Shown: positions 722 through 45,278 of the stretch, piece by piece | Layout of the letters: the number at the start of each line of letters is the position of its first letter | How positions within the stretch are numbered: the first letter of the stretch is position 1 | Origin: Isohypsibius dastychi | Taxonomy: Eukaryota > Tardigrada > Eutardigrada > Parachela > Isohypsibiidae | Direction: 5' to 3' | DNA: 58,645 bases | NCBI GenBank assembly: GCA_034696485.1 | Contig: JAQIWT010000022.1 | Coordinates: 1-58,645, forward strand | Notes under the pieces: model-generated | The model's database searches: none | What the model was told of the DNA's origin: nothing | The model's input: only the letters and a program-made list of their open reading frames with translations | Program-made: the position numbers and the translations under genes

Positions 722-3700
722 TGTTATCATATACGACATGGCGTCTCAGGTATCGTAATGAAATCTCTTGGATACCTCAATCCTGGATGTATATTTAATT
801 GTAACTTTCAAGCGGCCCCTTTGTGGGCTACAAGTTCCAAGAACAGTTCAAGGCGTGACTACCAAATTTGTGGCTTTAAACCGCAGAGATGATGTTTATT
901 TGGCGATTGGCGAGTATGCTCATCCTACCGCCCGTCTCTTCCTGTATCAATAATTCTGCTTTAGTGGCATAATTCGAGTTTGGGAATTCCGCGCGAACGA
1001 GAACAGACTGGCTTTCCGAAACACCTGTCTTGGCTTGATTCACCGGCAAATAGAAACAGTGAAAGTAATGATTACCGCCCGTTTCCAAAACATATTGTAA
1101 TTTGAGTTGCTAGATAGACTCAGACGATCGCTATATTTTTATCGGCACCAGAAGCGGAGATGTGATACAAATTGAGCTCGATGTGACTGCGGGCATTATT
1201 CAACCGCGGATAGTTGACAGTGTTGGCCGCTACCTAAAGACGGATACCCAGCGCCAAAAGGAGTCGTCTTGGTATGGCAACGGTAAGCTGTTTTTTGGCA
1301 GTTTGTGCTGACTTTATAGCAGAGTTTTCACAGGCGTGACAGCTCTTTATTTGCCGAAGGAGCTGCAGGGTACCATGTTCATCGGTACTGGATCGGGATG
1401 GGTTTACGAAACCCGAATAAAAAACATCCCGGTGCATGATCCTATCAAAAGCCGCCACGGGGTCACGAGGAAAGAACCACGACCAAAAAACGTCTTTGAA
1501 CCAGTAAGGTAGTGTCTTAAATCTCCGACTGACCGTTCGGTAATTCAAGCATCTCGTGCACTTTCAGAAAGGCACAGCTTTTTGGGGAAATCACTTCAAT
1601 CGTCCCCTTGTCAGACAAAAAGGCAGTGAGTAGCAGTAATATGCAAAGGTGATCGTGCTCAGTGTCTACACTTACTCCTCTCAGATATACGTCTCCACCT
1701 CTGCATCGAGCATTCACAGATTCGACAGCAGTAACTGGGAGAACCATGAACTAGTCTTCACTGCCAACCATGGCGAGATTTCAGGCGTAACCTTTCCCCA
1801 GTTAGTTCTAAACATGAACTAGTGGAACATTCACTTCATCCATTGCTCTCCTGCATTAACAGCGATTTTTCCGGAGTGTTTGCCACAGCTGGCCAGGATT
1901 ACTTGCGTCTTTGGTCGGCCGTAGATGGCCATGAGATGTTGCGTCTGAATGTTGCGAATACAATGTGCACGGTCGTGGATTTCATGAAAGATGGACACAG
2001 CATTCTTTCTGGTACGTGCTCAAAATACGCCTGAAACGGCAACCTTCACCACATTTTCTTTTACGCAAAACCGTCACGAATAACAGTATCATATCATTAG
2101 GTAATTGCAACTGGCACTTCAGGTCTTCGTCTTGTTGAGTAGTATCGTCAGGCAATAGTATGTTTTACAAGCTGAACAGTCCAGTTCAGAAATTTTCGAG
2201 GGGAGTATGAGGGCTCGTCTGGAAAGGTTATGCCAAACCCCACACAACTTTTCCGCGCCAGCATGGAAAATATTGCCGTGGCAGGACGTAAAAGTAGTTA
2301 TCAAAGTAATGGCCCAAGACATCAGGCTGCAAATATACTGGTAGAAACCTCAGAACTTTCCGAAAGTTGCTGTGCAAATTATCGTGGTCCCTTCTGATTG
2401 TTTGGGCGCTAACCAGACTTCAAAAAAAATCACTTTCTGTCATGACCTCACTTTGAACCCATGACCATTTTCGTCATGAGTTCACTTGGTCATGAGTTCA
2501 CTTCCGATCATGACATCACCGGCGGGTAAATGTATCGTGTAATTTGTGACTTTCTGCTGACGTCGTTGCAAATTGTTACTTGTATTGTAACTTTTTCAAA
2601 AACAGCAAGTCACAAGAATCGCAACAAGGAAAGCGGGAAAAGGATCTCCGGGAAAAAAGAGCACGGCCAACCATCAGCGCTAACTTGTCAGTCAAAATTA
2701 AATTTGAAAACGAAAGAGAGGCCGCCGCTTAGGAGAAGATATGTAATCCCTCACGTGTCGTCGAAAAACTGGACTGGCGGTCTGGTCCGGGAAAGTAGAT
2801 ACTGCACGTTTTGTACCAAACTTGTGAACAGGTGAACCACGCGTGAGATTCACACGTTGACGGCAAAACACAGGAAGCCGGACAAACAGTGGAAAAAAGT
2901 CAAAATTTAAGAGTGATCCTGAGTAATTTTGGAACATAGGGATCCACTACGATGAATCGTGATCCACGAACAAACCAAGTCATTTTACTATGAATTCGAT
3001 TTCGAGAATCCGTGGCACAATCTTTTACAACTGGTACACATGTATACCATTGTCTTTCAGGTTTCCTTCAGTGAACCTTGGTTCACCAGTTCACACTGGT
3101 TCATCACAGTTTACGAAAGTACACAGATATATATCATTGTATTCCCGGTGCACCCGGTGAACAATGGTTCACAAGTTAACACTGGTTCACCACGGTTCAC
3201 AAAGGTTCACAGGTATTTTGTCGCCTTCTAGGTTCACCCGGTGAACAATGGTTCACAAGTTAACACTGGTTCATCACGGTTCACAAAGGTTCGCATGTGT
3301 TTTGTCGCCTTCTAGGTTCACCTGGTGAACAATGGTTCACAAGTTAACACTGGTTCACCACGGTTCACAAAGGTTCACAAAGGCTGTCAATGGTGAACCA
3401 CTGTTAACTGGTGAACGGTGGCCCTTCAAATATCTAGAACCATTGTGAACTGTTGTGAACCACTGTTAACTGGTGAACTGTGAATAACTTTGATGAAAGG
3501 TGGTCCCTAAACAAACTGGTGAACCATTGTGAACTGTCGTGAACCACTGTTGAGTGGTGAACTGTGAGTAACTTTGGTGAACGGTGGCCCCTAAACAAAC
3601 TGGTGAACCATTGTGAACTGGTGAACTGTGAATAACTTTGGTGAACAGTGGCCCCTAAATTAACTGGTGAACCATTGTGTACTGTCGTGAACCGCTGTTA

Positions 3701-4970
3701 ACTGGTAAATGGCGAGTCAACGAGATGTAAGGTGTGCTGATTTGTGGCATCTGGGTACAAACTATGTGTATCCACAAGTTCACAAAGCTTGGTACACACT
3801 GTGCTGCTTCTGTAGTTGCACGGGATGATTTTTTAGCTAGGGCCTTTGCACAGCCAGCTCGGCAATAACAGTTCTGATCACACTTAAAACCACTTTTAAA
3901 AAAACTGGACGTCCACGTAATTCTGCAGAAGTCTAAAATTTTCTTGGCTTTTTCCTGCTTCAGTTAATAATCCGCTCTTAACCCGGTCGACACAGGGTGA
4001 ATCGGTATTAAATGAGTGCTTGCTCATGGCCAAGATGCTCAAACATCGCACTTCCATTCAAAACGAATATATTTCTTGCAGCATGGAGCGATGGTCGTAT
4101 AAGAGCCTTCAGCCCCGAGACTGGGAAACTGATTTATGAAATTGTTGATGCTCATCCCAAATCAGTTACCGCAATGGCAACAACATCGGACTGTACACGA
4201 ATAGTGAGCGGTGGAAAAGAAGGCCAAGTTAAAGTCTGGCTTTTGAGCCCATCGTAAGTGGCAAAAAAACCCGATTTCGGAAACTTGCATGACTTTGAAG
4301 CCTTCGTAGTAGTGGCCACAAGATGTTAAACTCCATGCACGACCACAAAGGGCTTGTCTCCTGCATACGCACCAACCACGACAGCTCAAAATGTGTCAGC
4401 TCAAGCGAGGACGGAACATGTGTCATCTGGGATCTCGAGTACGTGACGCATGCACATGCGCGTTTATTACCCACTCATCTGATGTTCCGCTACTCTAGAA
4501 AATACACTCGCTTTCAAATGGTGTTCGCCAACACTCTTTTCAAATGCGTCGTTTTTCATCCTATTGGATGTCAAATACTGACATCCGGAACAGACCGGAA
4601 AATTGGTTATTGGGAAGCATTCAATGGCCAACTATGCCGGCACATATATGGCTCAGAAGACGGAGCAATAAATGCTCTCGACATCACGGACGATGGCAAA
4701 TACTTTGTCACAGGCGGAGATGAGCGTATCGTGAAGGTACATATTCAAAAAAATTCGCAGGAGCACTGTGATATCTTTTGTGTCGAACAGATTTGGAGAT
4801 ATCAAGACGGACGCCTGGTAGCAGTGGGATCAGGGCATAGTGGAACCATAACGGATCTGAGGATATCACCGGACAAAAAGACGCTCTGTTCAGTTAGCAT
4901 CGACGGCGCCATACTACAGTGGGATCTTGGGTCACTTTTCGCTCAAGAATCAGCTAACATCCCGAAATGA
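722..4970 (+). CDS. CFAP52: CFAP52 (WDR16), WD40 doublet-microtubule inner protein; 5' part missing
   Basis: CFAP52 is a WD40 protein that lies inside the B-tubule of axonemal doublets and stabilises it. Recognised stretches include VIIYDMASQ (722-749), the exon 813-913 ending AIGD/GIIRVWEF, YIFIGTRSGDVIQ (about 1130), FATAGQDYLRLW (about 1880), AWSDGRIRAFSPETGKLIY (4082 on), SCIRTNHDSSKCVSSSEDGT, and LTSGTDRKIGYWEAFNGQ near 4600. All align with the animal protein in order. Short GT-AG introns (for example 750-812, 914-964, 1283-1333) join them in frame; one intron, 2012-4081, is 2.07 kb. The stop TGA is at 4968-4970 and an AATAAA lies at 5148. Roughly the first 150 residues were not found upstream, so the gene is either cut by the contig edge or misassembled. 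The family assignment is firm; exact exon edges are by eye. Confidence 0.93.
2012..4081 (+). other. 2.07-kb intron of CFAP52
   Basis: The donor GTACGT follows ...HSILS plus one base, and the acceptor TTGCAG precedes the codons for AWSDGR, restoring the WD40 frame seen in CFAP52 orthologues. This intron is more than thirty times longer than its neighbours and carries the GGTTCAC-rich array. Confidence 0.85.
3050..3720. repeat. inverted GGTTCAC/GTGAACC minisatellite array
   Basis: About three copies of an 84-bp unit containing GGTGAACAATGGTTCACA and ending TTTTGTCGCCTTCTA run from about 3148 to 3395. They are followed by about three copies of a unit rich in GGTGAACCATTGTGAACTG to about 3720. 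The second set is broadly the reverse complement of the first, so the whole forms a large imperfect inverted repeat around 3393. The heptamer GGTTCAC or its complement recurs dozens of times. Confidence 0.85.
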
Positions 4971-5147
4971 AAACTAAAAACTTATCCATCCTCATATTTT
5001 TGCTATTCCTTTATGCATATGCCGCATTCATTATGATCTATCACAATGACTTCTTGGTTTCCATAGATAATTCTTCTCTTTAAGGCACCGAGAGTGTATG
5101 CTGTTTCTTGTTTTTCAAGCAATATAACACAGTTGTACTAATGTTGA

Positions 5148-5167: not shown

Positions 5168-7457
5168 TGGCTGGAGCAAGCGGCCCACAGCCGGGTTTGC
5201 CAAATGCAGCACCCAAAGATGCAGAAAATGGATGCTGGAATATGAGATCTTTTTTGCCACGTTTTAGTCGTAAGAAGTCGTTTACATCAGTTGATGGCAG
5301 TATATGATGTATGCACTCACAGAACTTCGACGTGCATTAATTAAAACAAACACACCAAGTGAGCATATAACCTGAGTTCGCTGAGAGGTATGCTAGCGAA
5401 GGGTTGACACGCTTTCTCGCGTTTAGCATCTGGCGTGAAAGTGCCGGCTTCCAGTAGTGACAACACCAAAAGCCTAGAGATTCCAACTCCTCCTCCACCG
5501 ATGAATCCAAAAAGTGAGCAGTCACGTCTGTTTCAGATTGGACTGAAACGTTTTCGCTAGGTATTCTCCATGCAATGCCCACAATGACATCCGAAAAATC
5601 ATAAAGCGAAAAGCGTCAAATGTGATCTATGGTTGACGGGGTTGCCAAGTAGCAAGAAAGCAACTAGGCTTGTTTTGACTTGTTTTGACTGAACTCCACA
5701 GGTATCAACTTTCAGTACTATATTCGCTCTTCAAAATGCCGTATGCTGGCCCGTGTAAACTCACCGGCCGTCCTAAATCCACAGCTAAAAAACGGACCAA
5801 GACTGCGTCACCGTTTCGGTTATTACCTCCCGCTTCGTTACCAAATATGTCAGTGACTGACATCATACTCAAAATGGACCCCAGGCAGCATCCATTGCAG
5901 ACCAGCCTTCCGTCGAAACGTTGCACATCGAAAATGACAGATATCGGTCAGATAGAGTATCAGCAAGATATTCAGAGAAACAGAGAATATATGCTGAGTA
6001 AAGTAAAAGGCCTGGAAGGCTTCGTGTAATCCAATCACAGTGCCCAACTCTGGTTTTGCGATTTTCATGACATTTTTTACAGACGCAAACCAACGGGGAC
6101 AGAAGATAGCATAACTCGCGCTACAAGACTGATTGAGGCGGAGAGAATGACAGGTGAAGTGGAAGAAGCTTTGAAATCAGTTAAAGACGGCTTTGCGGCG
6201 GAGATGGAGCGCTGCATGAAGCGCAAAAATGATTCGGGAAGAAAGAATCTGGCCCTCGTCGAAGCCATGTACAACTTTTCGGAATTTTTAATGGTGCTAG
6301 CAAGCACTTCTTTGTCAACAAAGCTACGTTCTCTCATATGAAATGTTCTCTAGATAAGTGAGCGCTGGACAGAGCATAACAACATTCAAGCACTCAAACA
6401 AGAAAAGCTGACCGAAGATCTGTTGCAAAAACAAGAAGAGTGCGACTTTTGATCCGATTACTCGCACTGAGACTCGAACACCCAGGCATCCGCATTTCAG
6501 GCTGACGCATGAACTGGGATTAACAAGGCAATTGCAGGAGAAGTTACAAAAAGAATGTCATGCCAGAGCGTCGTATGAGAAAATTATCGAAGAGATTTTA
6601 TCGCAGTTTTCTGGCGTAAGACGTGCGTAGCCAACACAACATCATATTATAATGTGGGATATTTTCATTGATTAGAATGATTGCAGTACAATGGGCTTGA
6701 GCATTTTGTCAGTGATATGGAAAGACAAATCGCAATAATCCAATGTGCCGAAAGTATACAGCAAGAAATGGATATTGCTCACAAGAAAGCTGAGCAGTTT
6801 CAAACGCGGTTACAGACGGTACGACAAACCATCGTGGCTCAGGTCACGCCCCACCAACTGACTCAACTTTCTGTTTTCAGGCTGTAGAAATCAGGCTTGC
6901 ACCCATCGCCAAAAAGACTGAACAAATCGATGAAATCGTCGGAGAGCTTCAGAAGGAAATAGAAATGAACCAGAACCTGGCTGCAGCTGAACTGGCCAGC
7001 CAACAAGCGGATGTCAACGAATTTGTAGGGCAAAGAAGGTATGCCATCCTGCTTCAGAAGAACCATGAAACCTGACTCATCAAATCACTCCAGGCTTTTA
7101 TACGATGTATATCAACAAAGCTGTGACGTGATCAAACAGGAGCCTGCTGAGTCCAAGATACAACAAGAGGCGCAAATCCTACAGGTTTCTCTGATTTTAA
7201 CCTGATATATTAAAAACATCCCATGGCTGAACTCTGGTTTTTTGCAGATAGAGAAGGTTCTAATGGATGCGCATATTGTACGCACGGCCATAAGGCACGT
7301 TTTTGGGAGCACTGATTTAAACACGAGATCTCAACCTGCAAAAGAGCAGCTTGACGAGGTCGGCCCCATTATTGGATCGGGATATTTTACACAAATTCCG
7401 TATAAAGTTCAAATACAACCATTACCGTTTTATGATATCAAATCAAAAATAAAATGA
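5168..7457 (+). CDS. coiled-coil protein, multi-exon, unknown
   Basis: I do not recognise this gene. A start ATG at 5168 (MAGASGPQPG...) or at 5736 (MPYAGPCKLTG...) could begin it. Consistent exons are 5700-6026, about 6083-6340 (helix-rich, VEEALKSVKDGFAAEMERCM), about 6530-6620, 6685-6820, 6882-7040, 7094-7185 and 7246-7455, ending PFYDIKSKIK and TGA. Many short introns separate them. The protein is mostly charged and heptad-like (for example EQIDEIVGELQKEIEMNQN) with a basic proline-containing N-terminus. It lies between CFAP52 and a tektin, in convergent orientation to the tektin, so a flagellar role is a fair guess but is not shown. The exon chain is approximate. Confidence 0.6.
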
Positions 7458-7995
7458 CACCGATGTTCAAGCTTGTGCAGAACAAAGGCTCCAAACAGGC
7501 TATGCAGTGGAATCACAGAGAGCAGGACATGATTCGCATATTGCAAAACACTCCGCGGCTACTTCATTATCGCATCTCAGAGATTGGTTTTCTTCACGCT
7601 GATGTGAAGCGATTGCATTATGTTAGCATTAAACGGGTGACGTCACATTTTCTACCACAACCATCGATTTATCATTTGGTCATGGCTTTCGGAAAGAGTG
7701 TCGTGTATGTGTATACCAGTAACACTTTCTTTCGTCTTGCATGTAGTTGTTGTTCAAGGGTGGCAACGATCATGATTGCCATTTCTGAAAGTCTTAGCAT
7801 TCGTTAATTTTGCAATCTTTGTAGATACTTTTGGATGACAAAGAAGAACATGCAATACTGAGTTTGTTATGCCAGATTCTAAAGATTTCACGTGAGCAAT
7901 GTAAACTTCGAAAAAAACTCCGTAAAACAGAAAGCCGGTTCCTGTCCTGTTCGGACGACATGAGTTCAGATGCAGATACCAAGTTTCGCGAAGGA

Positions 7996-9967
7996 TCAGT
8001 TTGTCAGGCATGGGCGGAAAGACACTGGAAACGCGTCACGTACGGCCAGACATCTTTCGCGATCGCGATGGATAGCATCACTGGTGGATTTAATTTCGTG
8101 TTCCAGAGATGTCCTTGTATAATTTAGATTGTTAATCGAGATTTCGACATCTTTAAGCTGCTTTTGCAGACGGTCGATAGCAGCGTGTATCTCGTTGAGT
8201 TCTTCTCTGAGCCTGAAATCACAAACGTCGATCTATAGCTCGGAAGTCAGTTACCTCAGAGAACTTGCCCTTGATGTGCAGTGTCGTGGCAGTTTTCGAC
8301 TCCAGCTCTGTTTGAACGCCACTGCAGTCGGGTTTGTGCAAGTTTCAGGGGCTTGATCTTTTCCTCTATATTCCGCTTCAGTAGGTCAGAATCGCGCATC
8401 AGGTCACACAGCTCTTGAGTCAGCTAATATTTCAAGCGGTCAAAGAACATTCAAAATTGAAGCGGTTACGTGCAGTCACTGTACAATTGTGTATCGATGA
8501 TGGAGCTGTCGGCTGTAATCTTCCATCTGACAAATCTTCGCTCGAAGAACTTCGTTCACTTTTGACCATTGCTGCCAGAGATCATGCATAGTTCTCTTGA
8601 GAAGCTGGTCCGCATCCTGTCTCAAGCGGCTTGATTCGGCTCTAGTTGCCTGTGATCGCAGAATCAAACCATTTGACGCTTGTGCCCAGCTTTCTGGAGT
8701 CGAGACGCTATGAAAAAAATCAAAATTATTAATAAAAAATTATTAAATTATCAAAATTAATTATCATATCGTGAATGTCATCCAAATATATTCATTATTT
8801 GCCAGAATCTTGCATACTCACGTATTTTCAAACACTTCCACGCCGGGAAAAGCTCGAACTTCGGGGGAGGTGTGGTTAAATCCGTATGATCTGTGGTCAA
8901 TGTTAAGGGCTGTGTGCTTGTTCGAGCTATCTCGATACAAGTCGTCCAGCAAGACTCGGTTTCGTCTAGAGAATGATGGATGACTCGAAATTTACTCATG
9001 CAAATTGTGTGCACTCGTACCCGTTTTGAGCAAGCAGCTGCGAAACCATCGTGCGGAAAGCTTCTCGGGCGTTATTGATCATTTCTTGCTCCTGAGTAAT
9101 TTTCGCGAAATTGCTTGATACGTATTGGCATTCATGTGATGCTTACCCTGCCGAGTTCGAAATCCACGCTGTCCAGATACATCACAGCATTATCGCTCTT
9201 CTTCAATCTTCGAACGCCTGTGTTATCTAGAGAGATTCTGAGTGGACCATCAAGTTCCTGAATTTCTCGCTCCATTCTTTGCCTGATCAAGTCGATATCC
9301 CTCATTTCTTGTTCTAGCATCTCGGTTTCCGAAACAACTTCCCTCCGCCAGTAGTTGACATCGTTGACACGTTCACCGAGCTTCTGCTTGACCGAACTTT
9401 CTTTATTGGTAATCAGCTGATCTTAAACGTTTCGTTATGTATCTTATGGACTCTATTCCGCAAACGCTTCTTACTTTCTTCCTGGCACATTTTGAGCGTG
9501 TTTCTCTTCAGCTCAATCGGATCATCTCTGAGAGCATCAACTAGGTTCACACGGTACGGGTCTCTCAGTGTCCACTCAGGTACTGTTGCATCTTGCTTCA
9601 CAACCATCAAGTTTTCCACGTTTTTCATGTCGCTCGGGATGGTCGTAGTTACTGGAGGGAGCCTGCCTTGATTCAGGTTGTCCAGATCAAATCGAAGGCG
9701 ATCAGGCATGGGAAAGTCTCGTAGGTTAGCCGTGTTTAACATGGAGGCTGTCGACCAGTGTGGTTTGTACGTCCATGATCGAGGAAATACTGTCTGGAGC
9801 GGCGATAGTGGACCTCGATTATAGGCCAGTTGATATTCCGTAGTGTGCGGAAATATCCCAGACTGCGTGAGAGGCCCAAACGTGCCATAATTAATTTGAT
9901 CAGACCAGCGCGTTGGAGTGATGTTGTCCCTTCCTTGGATCAATGATGTGTCTCTGTGATGAAACAT
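7996..9967 (-). CDS. TEKT: tektin (tektin-3/4-like)
   Basis: Tektins are coiled-coil filaments inside the A-tubule of axonemal doublets. On the minus strand six or more exons read as a complete tektin: a proline-rich N-terminal extension of about 120 residues (9452-9967), KQKLGERVNDVNYWRREV (9147-9416), EQEMINNAREAFRTMVSQLL (9021-9091), NRVLLDDLYRDSSNKHTALN (8822-8965), VSTPESWAQASNGLILRSQA (to 8707), and LAQTRLQWRSNRAGVENCHD (about 8270-8430). Each aligns in order with animal tektins. The hallmark RPNVELCRD nonapeptide is here NRAGVENCHD, clearly diverged. Introns include a 35-nt one (9417-9451) and a GC-AG one (8213-8268). The stop is at 7996-7998. N-terminal length suits tektin-3 or -4; the exact paralogue is uncertain. 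Confidence 0.92.
8213..8268 (-). other. GC-AG intron in tektin
   Basis: On the minus strand the donor reads GG|GCAAGT and the acceptor TTTCAG|G. Splicing gives CHDTAHQGLREELNEI, which aligns gap-free with the tektin segment after the signature. Without it the frame ends in TGA within a few codons. Confidence 0.75.
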
Positions 9968-10099
9968 CCATGTTGCAGCACCAACTGATGTTACGAGACA
10001 CTAAATCACCTGTTCACGCATGTATTGGCACACTCCGGCACGGAAACGCGCCCACATCCATTGTTTCGCTTACAGTTATTGAACGCTGATTGATAATTT

Positions 10100-10952: not shown

Positions 10953-13242
10953 TTAAGCTTGGCTACTCATGTTTGATGTTAAGACAGCCTCTGACGTGTT
11001 CGGTTGTTCCCACACATCCGGTTCTTCCTCGGTGTCCGGGGAAGAGTTGATAGCACCCATGCTAACTTTGCCATTCTCTACGAATATTTTTCCCCTGCAT
11101 ACTGGACAGGTCATTTTCTCTTTGAGCCATAGTTCGATGCATGGGCGATGGAAACGATGAACACAGGGGAGCTCACAGAGTGCTGATCGATCATCATCCC
11201 TCGTGAAGCATATGGGGCAAGAGTCGTCCCATTTCTTGAAAGCATCTTCAGTCGGGGCCGGTAATTCACGTATAAGACATGCGTAAGAACAGACCATATC
11301 GATCGTAATGCCGTTCTGTATCGTTTGTGAGAAACGTATATTGCCGTCAGCGTACCGCCCGAAATAAAGTATGAAGTTGATCATTTGAGTCCCTCCCACC
11401 ACCAGAGTTTCCGTCATGCTGATAGCTTTCCAAAGTTGCTCAAACAAGAATGACATGACCACGAAGTTGATGAAGATTGAACACAGCTCTCTGATGATCA
11501 ACTGCCAAACTTTGCACAAATAATCCACATTTGAAAGGTAGAGGTGCCACTTGTGTGGGGCGTTATTGTATCTGTGTAGATGAGCAGTGAATGCAAGGGT
11601 GCTGACACACCCTGCCACACAGGCGATCAGAAGGTCGCCAAAATGAAACAGGGATTCCGCATGCATCCATAACTCAAATTCAGCAGGAAATGGCAATGGT
11701 GGTGAATCTTGCCATAACCAATTAACGAGCGTGCTGATTCCAAGTGGTGGCAACCACAAATTTTGGAAGAGTGCAGTGCCAAGGCACAGAGGAGCGATTA
11801 TTCCTTCAAGACATATCCGGATATATAGCTTCCATGTTCCAGTGCTCTCAAGAGATTTGTTCCTTGCGAACAACCTGGAGTTCTCAGCGATTGATGGAAG
11901 TTTGACGAGGGCCAATAAACAAACAAGACGAAGAACATTTTTGAGACTTTGCCCCGAGAACTGTGCCACACTAGACTGGAAAAAAAACGTCAAAAGTAAT
12001 CCCGTCAGCTCAAATCGGGTCGTCTCGTGTGAGTCCTGTTGTTGAGCCGGGAGGACTACTTCCAAAGAGTGAAACCACAAGGTTGACAAGTACTGGAAAG
12101 CGATTCCAACAGACCAGCAGAAACCACAGGCACACACATAAGACGATATCGCTGTTTGCGACATGATATCAATAACATTCATCAAAGATATCTCTGAGCC
12201 AGTTGTATGAGCTACGCCAAGCTTATGTACAGAGATGATAATCCAAGCTAATGCATACGCCTTGCAAATAACGTCCTCCTTCGCTGCCACCCAATGGAAA
12301 TGCTCGACAGTGACATAATACGATCCAATAGAGCTGACTCGAATGCCAGGACGTCGTGATGCAGCCAATAAGGTGAATGTAGCGAACAACCTCCACCGAA
12401 GTGCGTCGAGTATGAGGAATATCACGGGAACTGAAAAAACTAGGACCGCCGTTGACAGAGACATGTTGAAAGTTTTGTCAGACATCAGAGGCGCCCAGTC
12501 CAAACTCTTCATACTGCTGTGAAGAAAAGTGAGGAATGGCAGGCAGGGCCACAAAGCAAACCAGCCGCTTTTTGCTACAAATGCGCTCCGGCTTCCAATT
12601 GCCTCGACAAATGACGGGCTCCGTATTATTTCCATCATGCGCAAATGACGGAGGTTACTGATGAGCTGTGCGTGAATCAAGTTACTTGAAAAGAACACCG
12701 CAATCGCGAATGTCCAGGTCGTATCGACAGTGCCACGAAGTAGCGCGAACTCAGCGGCCAGAAGAACTCCGCATTCGACCAAAATTCCGTAGAGGACCAT
12801 TTGTGTTTTTGGCAAGAATTTGATAACCATCCATAAAGCAAACACACCTGCAGTGAAAACATGCTCTATGAAATCGGTTCTTAATGGATGTCATAAAAAA
12901 CCATTCTCATCAATTCGATCAAGAGTAATATACAGACGGATTGAAAAACTAACCGAAACCTACAGCAACTGGAGATTTAGCCAACGAAATTCCCATGTCG
13001 ATCCACGAGTTTTTGAGGCTATGATCCATGATGATGTCCCCTGATTCTGCTTCGACGGAAACATCAACTGAACTTGTTGAACTTGAACTACGCAGGAGAA
13101 AATCCATACTCAAAGCAATAAGAAGTCTCATCGACAAATCGAGTGTGTCATCATGCAAGTGATCAATGACTAAAACCATATTGAGAGTTGAAATCCTCCG
13201 ATATGAATCAAAAAGATTGCCGGCCAAGGCTAAACCACACAA
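10953..13242 (-). CDS. multi-pass membrane RING-H2 E3 ubiquitin ligase (RNFT/HRD1-like)
   Basis: The main exon (about 10953-12849) encodes some 620 residues with many hydrophobic segments followed by a C-terminal RING of the C3H2C3 type: CPIC, then CELPCVHRFHRPC and CPVC in the stretch about 11100-11240. An upstream exon (about 12945-13242) adds an N-terminal region and joins through an intron with donor GTTAGT and acceptor CTGCAG, giving AVGFGVFALWMV. Membrane RING-H2 ligases such as RNFT1/2 and HRD1 transfer ubiquitin at the ER membrane; the overall layout matches, but the exact subfamily is not certain. The tail after the RING is acidic and unstructured. It is divergently paired with the KCMF1-like gene. 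Confidence 0.82.
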
Positions 13243-13693
13243 GTTTGTTCATGAGTTAAGAACAAAAAAATTGGTGTTCCGATTGCTGCAGTCAAAATCA
13301 AACGCGATCGGTAATGCTCTCAGTCAGTGGGTCTGGAACAATAAGGATAGATATAAATGGTCCGTCTGACTGCTGGGTCCACCATAGCTAGACATTCCCG
13401 AAACAACCAATTCGAACCATAGTTCATCAAGTTTTCTGCTGAAACATTTGCTTAATCTCAACTTTGATTGTTCTGTTGACGTTTTCTAATTATTCGACTT
13501 CATTTTTGATTCATTCGACCTGTGGGATATAAATGCACGCTTCATTACTGCAAGCTTCGCTACCAGGCCTTTTACAGCCAATCAATTTGATTTTCCCCGT
13601 CACCGATTTGACGAATATGCAACATGGCAACAACTGCATTCGAATCACTGTAGATCCGTATAGCAAGCCACTCATGCAGGACGAGATTCATTG

Positions 13694-17123: not shown

Positions 17124-17860
17124 ATGGCCAAAGGAACAAAAGACTTGGATATAGTGACAGAACTCGATTCGTTCAACAGCTACAATGATTATCTCACCAA
17201 TAAGAATGGACTTGTGGGTTTGTCAGCTGCACTTAGATTCTTTTCATCAGAACAAATTGATCAAAGCTTCTGAAATCTTGCGCAGTGTGTGAGCCATACC
17301 AAGAGTGGGCAGGACCATGCATGGTCATGAGACGCTTTCTTAAGAAAGCAAAATTTGAATTGCTCGAGGGCGAAGAGTGTGATCTTGTGCACTTTTTTTC
17401 TGTGAGTGTTCGGTGATGCAGGCCACAATATGTATTGTCATGAGTGTCGTTACAGATAAAAGTCGACCTAATTCCAGCATTCAGAAATCTTCGGGGAAAA
17501 TGCGTCCCCACCTACTTATTCTTTGGTGTGCGTTCATTCATGCGGATGTTTTAGTGACTTAAATCCATCCAATATTTTCAGGGGAAGAATCTAGTCCATG
17601 TATTCAGAGGGCATGAGGCATCCACACTAATGCCGCTAATAAGAGAATTGGTCAAAAGAGAAAAGTCATGCATGTCTGGAAGATTCAAGCGGTGTTTTCT
17701 CTCCGTTACCAATCCGTTAGAGATTCCACCGACAGACCCAAAGCTGTGTGAACTAGAAGCTTTGCCTTTCACTGAATCTGAAGAAAAAGCCGAACCACCA
17801 GCTGCTTCTGCAGACGTGGAGAATCTGGACAGCGTCGATGACGTCAAGGAATCGGCATGA
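17124..17860 (+). CDS. thioredoxin-domain dynein light chain / NME8-NME9-like
   Basis: Exon 1 (17124 to about 17215) encodes MAKGTKDLD... ending NKNGLV; splicing continues VCEPYQEWAGPCMVMRRFLK, then VDLIPAFRNLRGKCVPTYLF, then GKNLVHVFRGHEASTLMPLI. This is a thioredoxin fold of the kind found in NME8 (TXNDC3), NME9 (TXNDC6) and the Chlamydomonas outer-arm dynein chains LC3/LC5. The active site reads WAGPC (17306-17320) rather than WCGPC, so the first redox cysteine is gone. After the fold comes an acidic tail (EEKAEPPAASADVENLD) and a stop at 17858-17860. No NDK domain was seen downstream, which fits NME9-like chains more than NME8. A dynein-arm role is inferred from the family. Confidence 0.85.
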
Positions 17861-34948: not shown

Positions 34949-37900
34949 CTAAGCAGCCTCGCGTCGTATGTTGGCCGCCAACTGGGCGAAACTCTTGATG
35001 TGCACAGTGGGGAAACGGAGCATCTCCAAAATGCTGGGATGCAGCTTTAAATTCGGAACATTCTTGCTCTCTGATGAACCGCTGAAACTGTACGGCCAGC
35101 ACGTTGTTTTGATATTTCAGCCTCGGGGTGGTGTTTGCACATTTTGAGGATTTTAATGCTCGACGTCTCACGTAGTCCAGATGGGGGCGAACAGACATCG
35201 TCACGTACGCATGAGGCCAACCGGCTGGCTTGCTGTTGAAAAACGATTACTCTCTGATAACACAGATATGGATCTCTTTACTCATTCCATGTTGGATCAA
35301 CTGGTTTGTCGCATGAAACGCACGTGAAGGATCGAATCGGTCTGAAAACACAAAGCTGGTTTGACTACATCAACTGTGGAATCTGATCACCGCTTGAAGG
35401 AAATTCTTACGTTTTGCTACCTGCTGCATCATCCACCTCGAAATGCTTTTCGATCGCAGTGATTCTCTTAAGAACAAAATCGATATTTTTATCAGTTTCC
35501 TCCTGAAGAATGTTGTAATCGTCCGAGCTGATTTTATCTTCAAAGCGCTGAAGCAACGAATTCATATTCTGATGTAAACTGTCCCCCTGTTGATGCAGCT
35601 TTAGTAAATATTTGACTCAAATTATTCCGCCCCTGTACTCCACCTGTTCATGAAGGTCACCGCCTAGTTTCATCAACTTTTCGTGTAGATGGTTCGACAA
35701 GTCTTCAAATAGTGTCTGGTCAACTTTACCGTCAAGGGAGGACACATCCGCCTTCTGTGACACGATTCAGCTGGTGAACACTGTAACAACTAAACGACTC
35801 AGTTTTTTATACCTGGGACAACTCTTTCGCGACGAATTCGGCATCTGCTTTACCCCGTAGTAGCTTGACGCCATGCTGCTGTACACCCTGTGCATTACCA
35901 GTGAGCTTACAGTAGTTCTTGCCCAATGAATATTCGTAATGAATTAACCTCAATCTTTTGCCTGTGAGTTTCCAGGATGTTTTCCAAATCCGACAGCCGA
36001 ATTTCAATCATCTCGAAGTTTTCCGCACACGCGCGAGAGAATATTTCGAACTCGCTTCGGCTCGGCCCAGTTGATCCCTGTCCATGCGCATTTAAATTGT
36101 GAATATAACCAACTCATCATGGGAATTCGAAAAGAACGTCGCTGGTATAAATAAACATCAAACTTGTTTACCGTAATCCCTCGGTCCGTCTTGGACTGTT
36201 GGAACTGCGGTTGAACTAATGCCTTAGCCGGCCCGCGAAGTTTTTCACCCAGTTGGTCTTTTAGTTTCACGTTCAGCGATGTAATTTCGGTGTGCAGGGT
36301 GTTGATGCGAACTTTGGATCTATCCAAATTATGTCTTTGGGCGTCTATCAAATCTGCCAATCCTCTGATCTGTTCCATTGTGGCAAATCCATCTCCCTCC
36401 AAGCGTAAGGCTTTACCAGTCGAATTTTCCTCTGTTCGCAAATTATCCTTGTCGGCTCCAGATAGAGGCTGAGTGCCATCCGGCGTCTCTTGTGGGTCTA
36501 AGGATTGACTCTGGGACAATTCGTCCTCAGGAGCAGTAGGCGATGTGTCAGCTTGGTCCTCATGTTCTCCCTGAATTTGTCGACCAGACGCAGGTTTCCT
36601 TTTACGCGATCGGTTCTTTGAACCGTCTCTACCCGAGCTACCGGTACGTTCGGACATGTGGGTTGTGCTGTCGCCTGGTGAGTCTTCGTCCAGAGTAATT
36701 CGGTGATCAGCAGAAGCTGATCCAGTGGTAGCTTCACCCAACAGTTTGAACTTCTCAATGTCGCTGCGTAGTACATCACCTATTTTAGGCATTTTTAACG
36801 TACATGCCTTCCTCGAAACGTTTCACTCACTCATTTTTTTAAACTCATTCTTATTAAGAAGACCCCCTAAAGATTCCTGCAATCTGATAATAGTCATGCA
36901 TTCCCTGATCAAACAAGCCTTCCTCTTACTTCGATCCGGGCAAGCCTAACTTCATATCGCTTGCTGGCTTTGATGAGTTTGCCAAGCTGCTGCAAAGACT
37001 GAAAGACGTCCGAATTAATGCCCTTTGCAGGACTTGCGCGATCTCGATTCGATTCGCTTGAGCCATCCTCCTGCTGTTGCTCCTCATCGCGACCTTCCAT
37101 CTTGGATTGATCATTCCCCTTGACCACTCCGAGAGTAATCTCAGTTTTTTCGTCTAGACTGGCTTGTGCAGCTTGTTCCATTTCGGCACCAACTACTTTG
37201 CCTTTCTTAGAGTACGCTGGTGCCTTGTTAAGCGTTTGTATTCGGCGAGGTTGTGACTCCTGGCCTGCTTCTCGAAAGGCTGCGAGATCTGGTGTTGGAT
37301 CATTTCCCCCAACCCGACTGTTTATTAGTTGACTGCTTCCTGAGCTATTTTGTGCATCTCTTGGATTTGGAATGGGTTTCGGTTGATAAGTCCGACTTCC
37401 TTCTGAGGCGCTTGACTGGGAGTTCTCTTGGCTAGACGCCATATCTGATGTTTCTGCATTTTGCAAAGAAGATTCAAGTGGACTGAACGACGACACCCCG
37501 TTTCCATCTTTTCTGATCTCCGAGAAATCACTCATATTTTCTATTTGTTCTTCATTTGCTACACGTTCCACAAGAGCCTCGCGAAGATCGGGCCAGGTCA
37601 CAAATGCAAGCTGCGCTTTTTGCTCTAGAAACGTTTTGCGTTGTTCATCCGTAAGCTGGCCAGGAAAGGGAGTCAATCCAGATCCAAGTAGCACCTGCAA
37701 ACATCCCTCATCAGCTGAAATAACAAGTCGATTAAACCAAGAACTGTAGAATTATCACAGTGTAAGACTATTTATAAACAAGAACAAAAAATTCCAGGGT
37801 GTTAGCTGCTGCAGATTTCACAATCATTCATTTCAGAAACTATCGCTGCTGGCCACGAGTTCTGAATTCAGATAAAGTTTGTCATCGCTGCAACCGATAC

Positions 37901-39190
37901 ACTGTCAGTGTATCGGTGTAACACTGATAATCATGAATCAGACGAATACTTCGTGCAACTTGCTCTCAGGGTTGAGTGTCAGTTGATGCATCAGATCAAT
38001 CAGTGAATCTTTGGTCTGTTTGATCTCCTGGACTTCATTCAACACATGATCCAACACATCAAAAGCTCGAGCAATGGCTTGATTCGTTGCATCCAAACGT
38101 GTCATAAGCGCTGCTGTCTGCATTTCTTCGGGTAATGGTGCTCCAGCAGCATCAACTTGAGCTGCATTTTGTACCGCTTGCATGCGAGCCTGCCACTCAG
38201 CGGCTAAACCACTTCCACGTGAGTGGCTCTTAATCGTTCCAGCTTGTCCAGCATCTTCTGACAACAGAGTCCCAGCACCGACCGAACCGCTACCTGCGTT
38301 CTCACCTTTCCCCGTTTTCGGCATGCTGCTGTTCTGATCTAACGTCTTGATTCCGGTGATGTTCTTGCTGGCTTTTGGTGAACTGCCTGTGGGAAATATG
38401 TTCACGCCCTTTTTTGGCTTAGTTGATCCGAAAACTGCAGCCCCAAATGGCTTAACGGATCCGTTTTCAATTTCTTTTAACTGATTATTGATGGGTGCTC
38501 TGGCGGACAGTTGACTCTGCTCATCTACATCCGATTCCTGAAATTCTTCACGCTCGTTCTTGGCTGGGTCGACCATCGACCTAAGAGCCGACACCATGCT
38601 CTCCAAATTCACAATTCGTTCTTTATCGCTCAGTGGAGAAATATGCGAATTAATCCATGGTGTATTGAGTCCGTCACTTGGACGGAGCTCGTTTGCCAGA
38701 TTCTTGCTTCTGTCGACATCAAGCAGGTCCCGTGGTGAGATGGTCGCATAACTTGAAATACCTCTGGGACTGTTGTTATCAGAAATAAAATACGCGTTGG
38801 CGGAGGCTTGAGTAGTCGCTCTACCTGCAGCATCACGAATCGTTTCACGAGATGGTCGTTCACGCAGATCGACGCGCTCGTTTGCGACATTGAGACGTGT
38901 CAAGAGGTACTCGAGAAGTACGTATAAACTGCGATAGTTGACATTTCCAAAGTCTGGACTTTTCAGTGATATATTGAGCAGCTCTGTCAATGTGGCATCG
39001 TCGGGAAGTGGCCCCCTAGAGCCACTTCCTTCACTTGGCGGAACTGAGGCTTCGATTGCTGGCTGACAGCGTGGTAAGGCACTTGGATTGGACGGGCGTA
39101 ATCTTTGGTTGCTGCCATTCAAAGAGGCCACAGTTGTTTCTTGATGATCATGGCTGAGCGGTGTGGAAGGTTCACTGGATGACATACCAA
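34949..39190 (-). CDS. QRICH2 / C16orf96-like protein (DUF4795 family)
   Basis: The likely start is MSSSEPSTPLSHDH near 39185. A conserved N-terminal block follows: TLTELLNISLKSPDFGNVNY, then RSLYVLLEYLLTRLNV (about 38905-38995). After a long disordered, Ser/Pro/Gln-rich region over three large exons (37938-39190, about 36930-37696, about 36180-36792), coiled coils appear: RLSDLENILETHRQK, VDQTLFEDLSNHLHEKLMKL and NILQEETDKNIDFVLKRI (35400-36007). The exon near 35278-35345 gives FRPIRSFTCVSCDKPVDP, matching the DUF4795 cysteine motif. The end may be TAA 35278-35280 or, if further spliced, TAG 34949-34951 after KLHPSILEMLRFPTVHIKSF. QRICH2 supports sperm-flagellum assembly in mammals; here the role is inferred. 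Confidence 0.75.
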
Positions 39191-39356: not shown

Positions 39357-40615
39357 ATGAATTGCTGTCAAAATATTAACTTCCTTTTCAAAGATGAAAT
39401 AACATGTATTGAGAGTTCGCTATGGGATAACAGTGGGACTTATTTTGGAAGGTACGCCGTGCTGTTGGTTGTGTTGTGTTTGTGTGAACGGCAACAGAGC
39501 ATGTCTTTTCAGCGAGTTCGAGAGAGACGAAATTGGTCGACTCATAGATCATATGGGAGAGCGAGCCGCCAAGGTCCACTGATCGAACATTAGTAGCGTT
39601 TTGTGTCTAAACAAATGCCAAGTCAGAACAATTACCGTGACGTGCTTTCTTTTCTCGAAATTTATCCCGATTTTCCGTTTGTACACATTGAGTACTCCAG
39701 AATTTCAGGCACAGTGCTTGGATTATACACTTACCAATAAGGCAACATTCAAGAATTCGGGACAAAGAATCTACGTTCTAAAAGTCGCAAAGGTTTTCGG
39801 GTAAATTGAAACTTTCGGGAACTGAATAGCTGCTCCATACCGGTTCCTTCAGTCTTAATGGTGGTATCACTGCATTTGTTCGAGTGGGGTGGAAACCATT
39901 GATGCTGCAAGATCAAGATGGATTCTTAATCAAACGCGATATGTTCTGCCTATTCGACATGTACGTCGCTCAAGGATATCAGCGCACAGGTCAAGGGAAA
40001 AAGCTGATGGACTTTGTGTTCCGAGTGGGTAGATTTGGTGGCGTCTTGGTTATTCGAAATTTTGGTTCACAGCATTTGTTTAACAGCATGAAAAGGTTCT
40101 CCCTTTCCATCTTGCAGTAGAACAACCATCTCGGGCTCTCCTGAGTTTTTTCAAGACAAAATACTATCTCCGAGATTTTTCCCACCAAGATCTGAAATTT
40201 ATCGTGTGGAAACGTTTCATGGACGAGATTCGACCGTGCGCGACCAGTGGTGGCAAGTATTCCACATCTTCTTGATTGGATCTACTGAATATGATTGGAT
40301 TTGACCTAATCTTTAGTGAAATATCATCCAAGGATATATACTCGGACAAGTAACGCGCACAGAGATTATCTTGGTGGTCCGTGGCCCATTCTTACAGCGC
40401 AGGAGACGTTGTCACCACACCGATACGTTAACTGGCATACCGCGAACGCAACAACACCTGGGAAAAATTTTGAACTCAACACAGATGAAATGCATTCTTA
40501 CGTCACTAAAGCGCAGGCACATGTCAATGCTGACGAATGCAAGACTAGAAAAAAAGAGCACTATGCGCATTGTCCACGTTCTGAACCAGATTTAGCCCTT
40601 TCAGTAGTCACGTGA
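39357..40615 (+). CDS. ATAT1: ATAT1 / MEC-17 alpha-tubulin N-acetyltransferase
   Basis: The enzyme acetylates Lys40 of alpha-tubulin in the microtubule lumen, using acetyl-CoA. Exons read: MNCCQNINFLFKDEITCIES (39357 on), EFERDEIGRLIDHMGERAAK (about 39522-39581), LTNKATFKNSGQRIYVLKVA (about 39729-39795), GGITAFVRVGWKPLMLQDQD then FCLFDMYVAQGYQRTGQGKK (about 39858-40027), EQPSRALLSFFKTKYYLRDF (about 40120-40180). The YVAQGYQRTGQGKKLMD block is the acetyl-CoA-binding signature of this GNAT subgroup, which ends R-x-G-x-G-K/R. A tail to 40615 (DLALSVVT, TGA) is unstructured. Its start lies about 170 bp from that of the QRICH2-like gene on the other strand. An AATAAA sits at 40831-40836. Confidence 0.93.
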
Positions 40616-41272: not shown

Positions 41273-42337
41273 ATGACTGAGAGTGAAGAGGAAACTGAAG
41301 ATGGGGACGAAGAAAAGGAGAAACTTGTGTATTTGGGAGTGAGAACTAATTGTTCTATAGATGTTGATCTTGCGCTAACTCAGATGAATTGAGTAGGAGT
41401 ATGCCGGTACCAGGAATGACAAGCTGGAACGGCATGGAACTGGCTGTGAAGCACTTTTGCCGAATGGTGACAGATACAAGGGTGACTATCAAAATGGAAT
41501 GAGACATGGAACTGGCTTGTATGTGCTGTTCAAAACTGGATCACGGTACGAAGGCGAATGGAAAAACGGATTGAAAGATGGTCCTGGAAAGTTCACCTAT
41601 CCCGATGGTTCAGTATATGAGGGAAACTGGACCAAAGATCTGAAGAATGGATATGGAGTGTACAATTTCGTGAATGGCGATTTATACGCGGGCGAGTGGA
41701 AAAGTGACTTGAGGCATGGGTATGGCGTATACAAGTATAAAGAGAGTGGCGCCAAATATGTGGGATTTTGGATTAAAGATAAACGCGAGGGCCGAGGCGA
41801 GATTCTTTGTGGTACATACAAATATTCCGGAACCTTCAAGGACGACTTGCCAGTCGGTCAAGGAAAATATGTTTTTGTTGGCGGGTTAGCGTCATACATC
41901 TCCCATTGGTCCAATAAGACCTTTTATCTTTTCAGGTACGAACAGGAGGGCCACTTTTCAACTATCCAGATGGTGGGTTTTGTAGATTGAAACAGCTATA
42001 GATTTGGACGATTTGCTGTGCAGGATGCAGCGTTGGCTGCGACGAAACTTGATATTCCGGTCGAAGAAGAAGGTCCTGAAGTTGAAGAAGGAGCTCAGGT
42101 CCCTGTACTTAAGTGGACTGCAGAAGCGTTCGTTCTTCCTGACAAACGAGACACTGGGGCGGACCCAAAAGGTAGAACAACATTTGAGAATTGTACAATC
42201 CGTCATATGATATACTGTTTGTAACAGAGCTGAGAAACAGAAAGTCAAAGCTGCCGGAAGACCCGGATCAAATGCAGTTACCACCGACGTGGGGTGCACA
42301 ATCACCGAGGACACTTGAGGAAAGAACAGAGACGTGA
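41273..42337 (+). CDS. RSPH1: RSPH1, radial-spoke head MORN-repeat protein
   Basis: RSPH1 is a MORN protein of the radial-spoke head that relays signals from the central pair. Start ATG 41273 gives the acidic MTESEEETEDGDEEKEK, then EYAGTRNDKLERHGTGEALL and a run of MORN repeats: YKGDYQNGMRHGTGLYV, YEGEWKNGLKDGPGKFTY, YEGNWTKDLKNGYGVYNF, YAGEWKSDLRHGYGVYKY, YVGFWIKDKREGRGEI and YSGTFKDDLPVGQGKYVF. The segment VPVLKWTAEAFVLP (about 42100) aligns with the post-MORN part of animal RSPH1. The end is read as TWGAQSPRTLEERTET with TGA at 42335-42337. An additional C-terminal exon near 42765-42901 (KQKKPTTRSSSESCENNG) may belong to a longer isoform but is unproven. Confidence 0.95.
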
Positions 42338-44186: not shown

Positions 44187-45278
44187 ATGACTGGCCAGTT
44201 TGATTCTTTCTGTTCGGGAGACAAGACAATTGGTGAAACACGGCTGAAAATTTTCGTGGTGACTTGGAACACAAACCAAAGCAGGAACTACAAAGATTTG
44301 AAGATTATTCTGGCCAAGCCAAGTATCAGCAATGCAGATATAATCGCAGTTGGACTGCAAGAAGTGAACCGTGATCATTCAAATTTGATCACTGCATTAC
44401 AGTTTACTGCAGGCATTGACCACATCCTGTACGCAGCAGAAACATTCGGTTCAATTATTCTAACTGTTTTCGTCAAACCATACTTGCTGACATCTTGCAC
44501 TGATTTAAAACGATCTAATATCCATCTGCGAGCTTGCAACTGCTTCCGCACAAAAGGTTCAGTTGCCATTTTCTTCCGGGTTTTCGGATCATCTTTTTTG
44601 TTTTTAACGTCCCACCTGGCAGCTGGGAGCTCTTATCGTAAATTATGCAAACGAAAACTGGAACTGAAGAAAATCCATGATGAACTGACGCTTTCTTTGG
44701 TGCATAAAAAGTGGGGGACTGGATTTAGTGGATTCGATGGTGTTGACTACGTATTCTGGTTTGGGGATTTCAATTTTCGTTTGTCCGAAACTCGGCACTC
44801 AGTTGACAGCATATTGCGGAAAAGTCTGGATTATCAGCACCTTAGGCAGGATGAAATTCAAAATTTGTTGGCCTTCGACCAGCTGACAAGATACAAAATG
44901 ACCACACTGCTACATGACTTCGTCGAGCCAGACATAAATTTTTTACCGACGTACAAGTTTGATCCACAATCGAATTTTTACGATACATCGAAAAAGCAAC
45001 GGATCCCCTCCTACACAGATCGAATTTTTTCGCGATGCAAAAATTCCAGTACTCTTTTTTGTCATTCTTATGAGTCACCCGACGCCGCATTTTCTTCGGA
45101 TCACAAACCAGTATACGCCTCGTATGAAATTGCTGTCTTACGACAACCAAGCATTCAGGTTGAAATGCTACATGCCGATCGAACAATGACTGATTACTAC
45201 AGAAAACAGCGCAAAGCAGCATTACAAAAGAGGTCGCTGCATCAAAAATTATCGGCTTGTGGTTGTGGAGTTTTTTAG
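44187..45278 (+). CDS. inositol polyphosphate 5-phosphatase, INPP5E-like, with C-terminal CaaX-type end
   Basis: All the 5-phosphatase motifs are present in one intronless frame: FVVTWNTN, ADIIAVGLQE, FLTSHLAAG, YVFWFGDFNFRLSE (the W-x-GD-x-N-x-R motif), FLPTYKFD, RIPSYTDRIF and SSDHKPVYA, with catalytic Asn, Asp and His in place. Such enzymes remove the 5-phosphate of phosphoinositides. The protein is about 363 residues and ends CGCGVF, so the last four residues CGVF have a CaaX-like shape, which in INPP5E directs prenylation and delivery to the cilium. The N-terminal Pro-rich region of INPP5E is absent; upstream exons were not found. Identification as INPP5E rests on the tail and the neighbours. 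The stop TAG follows GVF at about 45276. Confidence 0.9.
   Translation: MTGQFDSFCSGDKTIGETRLKIFVVTWNTNQSRNYKDLKIILAKPSISNADIIAVGLQEVNRDHSNLITALQFTAGIDHILYAAETFGSIILTVFVKPYLLTSCTDLKRSNIHLRACNCFRTKGSVAIFFRVFGSSFLFLTSHLAAGSSYRKLCKRKLELKKIHDELTLSLVHKKWGTGFSGFDGVDYVFWFGDFNFRLSETRHSVDSILRKSLDYQHLRQDEIQNLLAFDQLTRYKMTTLLHDFVEPDINFLPTYKFDPQSNFYDTSKKQRIPSYTDRIFSRCKNSSTLFCHSYESPDAAFSSDHKPVYASYEIAVLRQPSIQVEMLHADRTMTDYYRKQRKAALQKRSLHQKLSACGCGVF

What the first reader, a model, noticed from the sequence alone, without database searches (positions are those of the whole stretch)
722..45278. Dense cluster of ciliary genes in one 45-kb stretch
CFAP52, tektin, a thioredoxin-type dynein chain, CEP131, DNAL1, SPAG6, a QRICH2-like gene, ATAT1, RSPH1 and an INPP5E-like phosphatase all lie together, with PKA-R among them. 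They cover doublet, dynein arm, spoke, central pair, basal body and ciliary membrane. Ciliary genes are generally scattered in eukaryote genomes, so this density is unusual if it is not a sampling effect. It also makes the unknown genes in between candidates for flagellar roles.
Basis: partly seen in the sequence, partly recalled or inferred. Interest (0 to 1): 0.75.

Follow-up and report, generated by a model that had tools for sequence, protein, structure and literature searches.

The report
Tardigrade sperm-tail gene neighbourhood
A 58-kb piece of a water-bear genome holds an improbable crowd of genes that build the whip-like axoneme, which in these animals probably serves mainly the sperm tail, and a second, smaller crowd appears to lie elsewhere in the same genome.

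Summary
The window is one whole contig (C22) of a tardigrade close to Hypsibius (SPAG6 85% identical to H. exemplaris). Of about 19 genes, 11 are supported as ciliary by sequence: CFAP52, CCDC42/CFAP73, a tektin, a TXNDC6/LC3-type thioredoxin, DNAL1, SPAG6, a DUF4795/QRICH2-like gene, ATAT1, RSPH1, an INPP5E-like gene with a CaaX-like end, and a DRC4/GAS-like gene. CEP131 stays unconfirmed; PKA-R is not cilia-specific. Three contigs of the same size showed none by eye (not blind), and none in 30 of their exons tested against Pfam. A second contig, C15, holds RSPH4, an RSPH3-like gene, TTLL, SPEF2 and ARMC3, but the statistics for it are modest, and 15 other marker loci are single on contigs that were mostly not read. 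The linkage is not conserved: four of these genes lie on four scaffolds in Paramacrobiotus. Ecdysozoans are held to lack motile cilia, so I read this as a sperm-flagellum neighbourhood, resembling Drosophila testis-gene clusters and the male-biased regions reported in a tardigrade (PMC11191345). Expression is not shown; an X-box test found no enrichment.

The parts
810..4967 (+). CFAP52 (inner doublet protein); N-terminal about 178 residues not found, perhaps cut by the contig end
   Evidence: PDB CFAP52 2e-93; tblastn of Paramacrobiotus CFAP52 P0122 matches exons 810-4967; Ramazzottius homologue 86% over the piece queried
6078..8100 (+).
   Evidence: Paramacrobiotus CCDC42 homologue P0127, 71% over the matched piece; PDB CFAP73 E 0.006
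8002..10000 (-). tektin (tektin-3-like)
   Evidence: Pfam PF03148; tblastn with Ramazzottius and Paramacrobiotus tektins P0123/P0124, 43-68% by exon
10953..13179 (-). membrane RING E3 ligase; not ciliary
   Evidence: zf-RING_2; gene model
13664..15023 (+). KCMF1-like gene (ZZ and Di19 fingers); not ciliary
   Evidence: the name KCMF1 is recalled from domain order
17115..17857 (+). thioredoxin-type axonemal dynein chain (TXNDC6/LC3 type; active site reads WAGPC)
   Evidence: PDB TXNDC6 5e-15 and dynein 14-kDa LC 3e-9; exons
18841..24599 (-). long coiled-coil gene; CEP131 identity not confirmed
   Evidence: only weak coiled-coil matches; an inverted-repeat element at 20.3-21.1 kb lies inside
24890..25782 (+). 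DNAL1 (outer-arm dynein light chain 1)
   Evidence: PDB DNAL1 4e-46
27698..29897 (+). SPAG6/PF16 (central pair)
   Evidence: PDB SPAG6 7e-140; 85% to Hypsibius exemplaris SPAG6
31886..34056 (+). PKA regulatory subunit; not cilia-specific
   Evidence: cNMP_binding, two stretches, 114 bits; RIIa only 15.1 bits on contiguous letters
35050..39185 (-). DUF4795/QRICH2-like gene
   Evidence: PF16043 53.9 bits; first Met at 39185
39357..40603 (+). ATAT1 (tubulin acetyltransferase); start 172 bp from the divergent DUF4795 gene
   Evidence: PF05301 73 bits; metagenome homologue P0128 81% over the matched piece
41273..42224 (+). RSPH1 (radial spoke head)
   Evidence: PDB RSPH1 1e-49; best MORN locus of the genome
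44187..45278 (+). INPP5E-like phosphatase, single exon in my model, C-terminal CaaX-like CGVF
   Evidence: PDB 2xsw 1e-46; Exo_endo_phos2 172 bits; C terminus
45502..46834 (-). unknown membrane protein
   Evidence: no Pfam match
47739..49601 (+). unknown protein
   Evidence: no Pfam match
49696..50418 (-). unknown; weak RasGEF match below cut-off
   Evidence: 17.9 bits
50843..52331 (+).
   Evidence: PF13851: 33.3 bits, only match over cut-off in the genome, the stretch crosses one TGA; 28.4 bits, below cut-off, on the spliced version
55424..58303 (+). unassigned coiled-coil gene
   Evidence: no PDB match in this part of the query and no Pfam match over cut-off

Best explanation
This is a non-random neighbourhood of sperm-flagellum genes in a hypsibiid-like tardigrade. 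Tardigrades are ecdysozoans, held to lack motile cilia, with flagellate sperm, so genes for doublets, dynein arms, spokes and central pair are effectively testis genes. Several such genes, intact with introns and in mixed orientation, have come to lie in one block (C22), and others in a probable second block (C15). The most likely mechanism is gradual relocation and retention of testis-expressed genes in shared chromatin domains that are opened in spermatocytes and closed in the soma, helped by divergent gene pairs with short shared upstream regions. Shown: gene identities, density against three controls, a second contig with five ciliary genes, and absence of linkage of the genes that could be traced in two relatives. 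Inferred: testis expression, the shared domain, and selection as the cause.
For: Eleven supported ciliary genes among about 19. None recognised in the exon candidates (score 5 or more) of three size-matched contigs, and none in 30 of their exons tested. Searches for RSPH4 and TTL, run before any of C15 was read, both landed on C15 (chance that one of three TTL loci falls on the RSPH4 contig 0.006); reading C15 added SPEF2, ARMC3 and an RSPH3-like gene, that is 3 of about 14 further genes, p 0.0025 at 2% background. Tardigrade identity. [quoted passage not shown] In Paramacrobiotus metropolitanus, strongly male-biased genes are concentrated in 325 200-kb bins on 29 scaffolds, enriched for sperm function (PMC11191345, section 16 read). 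[quoted passage not shown] C22 and C15 resemble each other in tetranucleotide composition (0.977) more than either resembles the controls (0.950-0.974) and have higher GC.
Against: No expression data. ATAT1, INPP5E and PKA-R are not testis-specific elsewhere (recalled). Fifteen of 21 marker loci are single on their contigs; of those 15 contigs only parts of two (C40 and C312) were read. The C15 result is weak in other framings: some pair among 16 loci chosen without sight of C15 shares a 60-kb bin with chance 0.21, and 3 of 14 further genes has p 0.07 at 7% background. The 0.003 and the 0.0014, 0.0027 and 2.5e-6 should not be used: the marker sets they model include RSPH3, which I searched after seeing it on C15, and tektin, MORN and GAS, chosen with the window in view. 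X-box (RFX) promoter scores are not enriched (3 of 16 ciliary, 1 of 5 other window genes, 3 of 41 controls at p<0.05; Mann-Whitney p 0.14; X-box count in the window 7 against 4.7 expected). The linkage is absent in Paramacrobiotus, and for CFAP52-tektin in Ramazzottius, so there is no sign of long-term selection to keep it. Only three controls were read in full, by me and not blind; divergent ciliary genes could be missed there.
Confidence: 0.52

Rival explanations
1. Coincidence plus neutral history: genes landed together by chance rearrangements and nothing keeps them together.
For: Not conserved in relatives; no shared X-box signal; non-ciliary genes interspersed; the window was picked because it looked dense; the second block is only modestly significant.
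Against: Binomial p for C22 over 520 windows is 5e-6 even with 7% background.
Confidence: 0.22
2. A male-specific or sex-linked region (Y-like) that accumulates male-fertility genes.
For: Content is sperm-tail heavy; Y chromosomes of flies carry axonemal dyneins (recalled).
Against: The genes are mixed with genes of general type. In Paramacrobiotus the authors conclude against sex-chromosome determination, though they saw several candidate male-specific regions with contradictory PCR results (PMC11191345, discussion passages read). Read depth is not available.
Confidence: 0.08
3. A functional cilium cluster in the first reader's sense: genes kept together because their products form one organelle, with unknown neighbours also flagellar.
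For: The genes cover doublet, dynein arm, spoke and central pair.
Against: No conserved neighbourhood for the genes traced in two other tardigrade genera; members of one complex are spread (RSPH1 on C22, RSPH4 on C15, the better RSPH3 match on C53); unrelated genes in between.
Confidence: 0.1
4. Assembly or binning artefact: a misjoined contig or DNA of another organism.
For: C22 is slightly richer in GC (0.440 against 0.420-0.423) and less like the three controls in tetranucleotides (0.950-0.962) than they are like each other (0.981-0.986).
Against: SPAG6, CFAP52, tektin and CCDC42 match tardigrades best; codon use correlates at 0.914-0.963 with the three controls. No gene right of 41 kb was tied to a tardigrade: pieces of the INPP5E-like, membrane and DRC4-like genes found no homologue.
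Confidence: 0.04

Closest known systems
Male-biased gene regions of the tardigrade Paramacrobiotus metropolitanus (PMC11191345)
   Same: Tardigrade; sperm-function genes concentrated in particular genomic bins; authors argue against sex chromosomes.
   Different: Defined by expression in 200-kb bins; here by identity of axonemal genes in 58 kb, without expression. The terms 'cilia' and 'flagell' do not occur in that paper's main text. The orthologues of four window genes lie on four scaffolds there.
Testis-specific gene clusters of Drosophila (59D, 60D1), silenced at the nuclear lamina outside testis (PMC3511463, PMC8989536; passages read)
   Same: Tissue-restricted male germ-line genes grouped in blocks.
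   Different: Here the members identified are old, conserved axoneme genes; chromatin state and expression are unknown.
Conserved gene neighbourhoods of green algae (PMC7826186; abstract and term search only)
   Same: Functionally related eukaryotic genes lying close together.
   Different: Those are conserved across classes; this linkage is not conserved in the relatives tested. That paper's main text contains no 'flagell' or 'cilia'.

Membership tests
Testis-specific / male-biased gene cluster | Excess of testis- or male-function genes over the genome background in a block | tested here: met
   11 of about 19 genes against none seen in three size-matched contigs, taking axonemal genes as sperm genes
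Testis-specific / male-biased gene cluster | Members co-expressed in male germ line and silent elsewhere | not testable with these tools
   no RNA data held
Testis-specific / male-biased gene cluster | More than one such block in the genome | tested here: inconclusive
   C15 has five ciliary genes of about 16; chance figures from 0.0025 to 0.21 by framing
Conserved functional gene neighbourhood | Linkage kept in related genera | tested here: not met
   four orthologues on four Paramacrobiotus scaffolds; CFAP52 and tektin on two Ramazzottius scaffolds; Hypsibius could not be tested
RFX/X-box regulated ciliary gene set | X-box enriched upstream of members | tested here: not met
   3 of 16 against 3 of 41; p 0.14; low power, hand-set matrix, uncertain starts
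Operon | Head-to-tail genes on one strand | tested here: not met
   strands change ten times along the 19 genes
Sex-linked (Y-like) region | Sex-specific read depth | not testable with these tools
   no reads held

The most novel reading that the evidence does not exclude
Loss of motile cilia in ecdysozoans turned axoneme genes into single-tissue sperm genes, and in this tardigrade lineage a substantial part of the sperm axoneme is now encoded in a few gene islands (C22, C15, perhaps others), newly assembled from dispersed ancestral positions, which makes tardigrades a natural test of how tissue restriction drives gene clustering.
Probability: 0.27. Interest if true: 0.72.

Novelty: new variant of a known kind. 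Interest (0 to 1): 0.54.

Why it matters
Axoneme genes in animals with motile cilia serve many tissues and are taken to be scattered. If tardigrades collect them once they serve sperm alone, one could test directly whether tissue restriction, rather than shared function, drives gene clustering in animals. It also supplies sperm-biology candidates in a phylum with little male-germline genetics.

Tried and rejected
X-box enrichment: looked promising at three or four starts but did not hold against controls. Operon: rejected on strand changes. Retrocopies: unlikely, since SPAG6, CFAP52, tektin, DNAL1 and RSPH1 have introns in my models and alignments; INPP5E-like is a single exon in my model. Rfam and tRNA scans of the window: nothing. 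DUF4200 as a CFAP73 marker found nothing in the genome, although the Paramacrobiotus homologue carries it. RSPH9, DNALI1, GAS8 and IFT52 typed from recall gave no hits. The RSPH3-like gene of C15 was seen by eye, gave no Pfam match in my spliced version and no PDB match, but the genome search then placed a second RSP3 match there at 31.1 bits. A CFAP100-like reading of the C15 gene at 13.1-15.2 kb found no support. The coiled-coil neighbour of CFAP45 on C40 found no support. A PDB search of the N-terminal tektin half found nothing at 1e-10. The PACRG stretch on C312 (4.5 kb) showed no second ciliary gene that I recognised. In one search, pieces of the RING, membrane, INPP5E-like and DRC4-like genes found no homologue, and pieces of RSPH3, RSPH4 and the CEP131 candidate found none, so their linkage could not be traced. 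H. exemplaris linkage could not be tested beyond SPAG6.

Changed on checking: the marker simulation was not blind and is withdrawn in favour; for this I lowered the main reading from 0.58 to 0.52, raised coincidence from 0.17 to 0.22, lowered the novel case from 0.30 to 0.27 and interest from 0.56 to 0.54. The RIIa match was withdrawn; the DUF4795 match was repeated with window letters only.

Literature: the listings of nine searches showed no paper on a genomic cluster of ciliary genes in an animal; that is a statement about this library and these terms only.
Full report
WHAT THE WINDOW IS. The window is the complete contig C22 (58,645 bases) of a 30.4-Mb, 1648-contig assembly; contig numbers follow size in the nine contigs whose lengths I saw (with C22 itself). 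The organism is a tardigrade: SPAG6 is 85% identical over the whole query to Hypsibius exemplaris and 58-72% to Paramacrobiotus metropolitanus, against at most 53% for the other listed hits; CFAP52 is 86% to Ramazzottius varieornatus over the piece queried, and tektin is best matched by Ramazzottius and Paramacrobiotus. H. exemplaris is in Hypsibiidae. The species itself is not identified.

CHECK OF THE GENES. I wrote a simple gene finder trained on this genome (GT-AG introns, median 107 bases in the last training round; models) and an exon-candidate scan, then tested pieces against Pfam and the PDB. Supported as ciliary: CFAP52, CCDC42/CFAP73-like, tektin, TXNDC6/LC3-type thioredoxin chain, DNAL1, SPAG6 and RSPH1, DUF4795/QRICH2-like, ATAT1, INPP5E-like with a CaaX-like ending, and a DRC4/GAS-like gene (the weakest, just over cut-off in one form and below it in the other). 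That is 11 of about 19 genes; the total of 19 is my count from homology and models, since the gene finder alone gave 22 models, 12 of them strong. CEP131 could not be confirmed. PKA-R is real by its two cNMP domains but general. The other genes are a RING E3, a KCMF1-like gene and several unknowns.

IS IT MORE THAN CHANCE. Three contigs of nearly equal size (C21, C23, C24; 174.9 kb together) were fetched and their exon candidates scoring 5 or more read, with 10-kb pieces of C1 and C1500: proteases, a serpin, receptors, translation and transcription genes, transposons; no ciliary gene seen. The gene finder has 41 strong models on the three. Of 30 exons from them scanned against Pfam, 19 had a family and none was ciliary. 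This reading was not blind, and divergent ciliary genes without domains could be missed. With 19 genes and 11 hits the binomial p is 1e-14 at 2% background and 9e-9 at 7%; counting only eight motility-specific genes (CFAP52, CFAP73, tektin, thioredoxin chain, DNAL1, SPAG6, RSPH1, DRC4) it is 2e-9 and 2e-5.

IS IT ALONE. Twelve genome searches located marker genes. In C22: tektin, RSPH1 as best MORN locus, GAS; these three families were chosen with the window in view. Elsewhere, 18 loci: RSPH4/6 C15; RSPH3 C53 and C15 (searched after I had seen the gene on C15); TTL C15, C1071, C1219; TPH C40; dynein heavy chain C658, C386, C871, C198 (possibly parts of fewer genes); HYDIN-like C257; CFAP20 C300 and PACRG C312; EFHC-like C119, C1293, C129 and DNAI2-like C982. 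Three further MORN contigs (C185, C243, C77) are not counted because MORN is not cilia-specific. DUF4200 gave none. RSPH4 and TTL met on C15 before I had read it: 0.006 for that particular meeting, but 0.21 that some pair among the 16 loci other than RSPH3 shares a 60-kb bin. I then read C15 (62.5 kb): besides RSPH4, the RSPH3-like and TTLL genes it holds SPEF2 (PDB sperm flagellar protein 2, 2e-8), ARMC3 and a PP1-type phosphatase. Beyond the two anchors, 3 of about 14 genes gives p 0.0025 at 2% and 0.07 at 7%. So C15 is a probable, not a proven, second block. On C40 the TPH gene is CFAP45. Clustering is therefore at most partial as far as seen.

IS IT OLD. The protein search reports the length of the contig that carries each hit, which serves as a fingerprint. 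In P. metropolitanus SPAG6 is on 1,328,310, CFAP52 on 1,446,634, tektin on 270,545 and CCDC42 on 1,316,659 bases: four scaffolds. In R. varieornatus CFAP52 (RvY_01758) is on 9,333,084 and tektin (RvY_16984) on 1,536,585 bases. So the block is not an ancient linkage, unless it was broken up independently or the genes sit near scaffold ends; orthology of the tektins rests on 43-68% exon identity. For H. exemplaris only SPAG6 was found (contig 79,204), so the age inside the family is open.

ANATOMY. Genes stand on both strands, with ten changes of strand. Two divergent pairs have short spacers: DUF4795 gene and ATAT1 (starts 39,185 and 39,357), and the coiled-coil gene and DNAL1 (24,599 and 24,890). 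SPAG6, CFAP52, tektin, DNAL1 and RSPH1 have introns, so retroposition did not bring them. An RFX X-box test was negative.

HOW IT LIKELY WORKS. [quoted passage not shown] that tardigrade sperm are flagellate is recalled. The axoneme genes here should therefore be expressed mainly in the male germ line. Testis genes cluster in Drosophila (about 40% in clusters, PMC8989536, passages), where lamina contact and histone deacetylation silence such a cluster outside testis (PMC3511463, passages). In P. metropolitanus, strongly male-biased genes are concentrated in 325 bins on 29 scaffolds with sperm-function enrichment, and the authors argue against sex chromosomes (PMC11191345, section 16 and passages). 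The window fits a sequence-level instance of the same phenomenon in another tardigrade family. Shown: identities, density, a second contig with five ciliary genes, absence of linkage for the genes traced. Inferred: expression, chromatin domain, adaptive retention.

VERDICT. Observation confirmed and extended. Interpretation shifted from a ciliary gene cluster to a sperm-gene neighbourhood. Known in kind (testis and male-biased clusters), unusual in that conserved axoneme genes dominate it. The claim that unknown neighbours are flagellar has little support.

Noticed in passing
20316-21134: Two inverted copies of a repeat with 31-base tandem units inside the long coiled-coil gene; looks like a fold-back mobile element in an intron.
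   Followed up: no
3071-3684: 84- and 64-base tandem repeats in the large CFAP52 intron.
   Followed up: no
53041-53342: 19-base minisatellites between the two coiled-coil genes near the right end.
   Followed up: no
17115-17857: The thioredoxin-type chain reads WAGPC where WCGPC is usual (recalled), so its redox site seems to have lost one cysteine.
   Followed up: partly
44187-45278: The INPP5E-like phosphatase is a single exon in the gene model and ends in a CaaX-like CGVF.
   Followed up: no
contig C15 47345-47554 (L029 7345-7554): A second, diverged RSPH3-like gene on the same contig as RSPH4, while the better RSPH3 match is on C53.
   Followed up: partly
contigs C22 and C15: The two ciliary contigs have higher GC (0.440, 0.437) than three controls (0.420-0.423) and correlate best with each other in tetranucleotides.
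   Followed up: partly
whole genome G000: Only one tektin locus was found, whereas the tektin survey lists tektin-1 and tektin-2 for a tardigrade (PMC6357514, passages); the held assembly may be incomplete or the others too diverged.
   Followed up: no
L017-L022 (contig C24): Control contig with mobile-element domains (MULE-type, reverse transcriptase, a UL52-type primase match) plus PAN and astacin genes.
   Followed up: no
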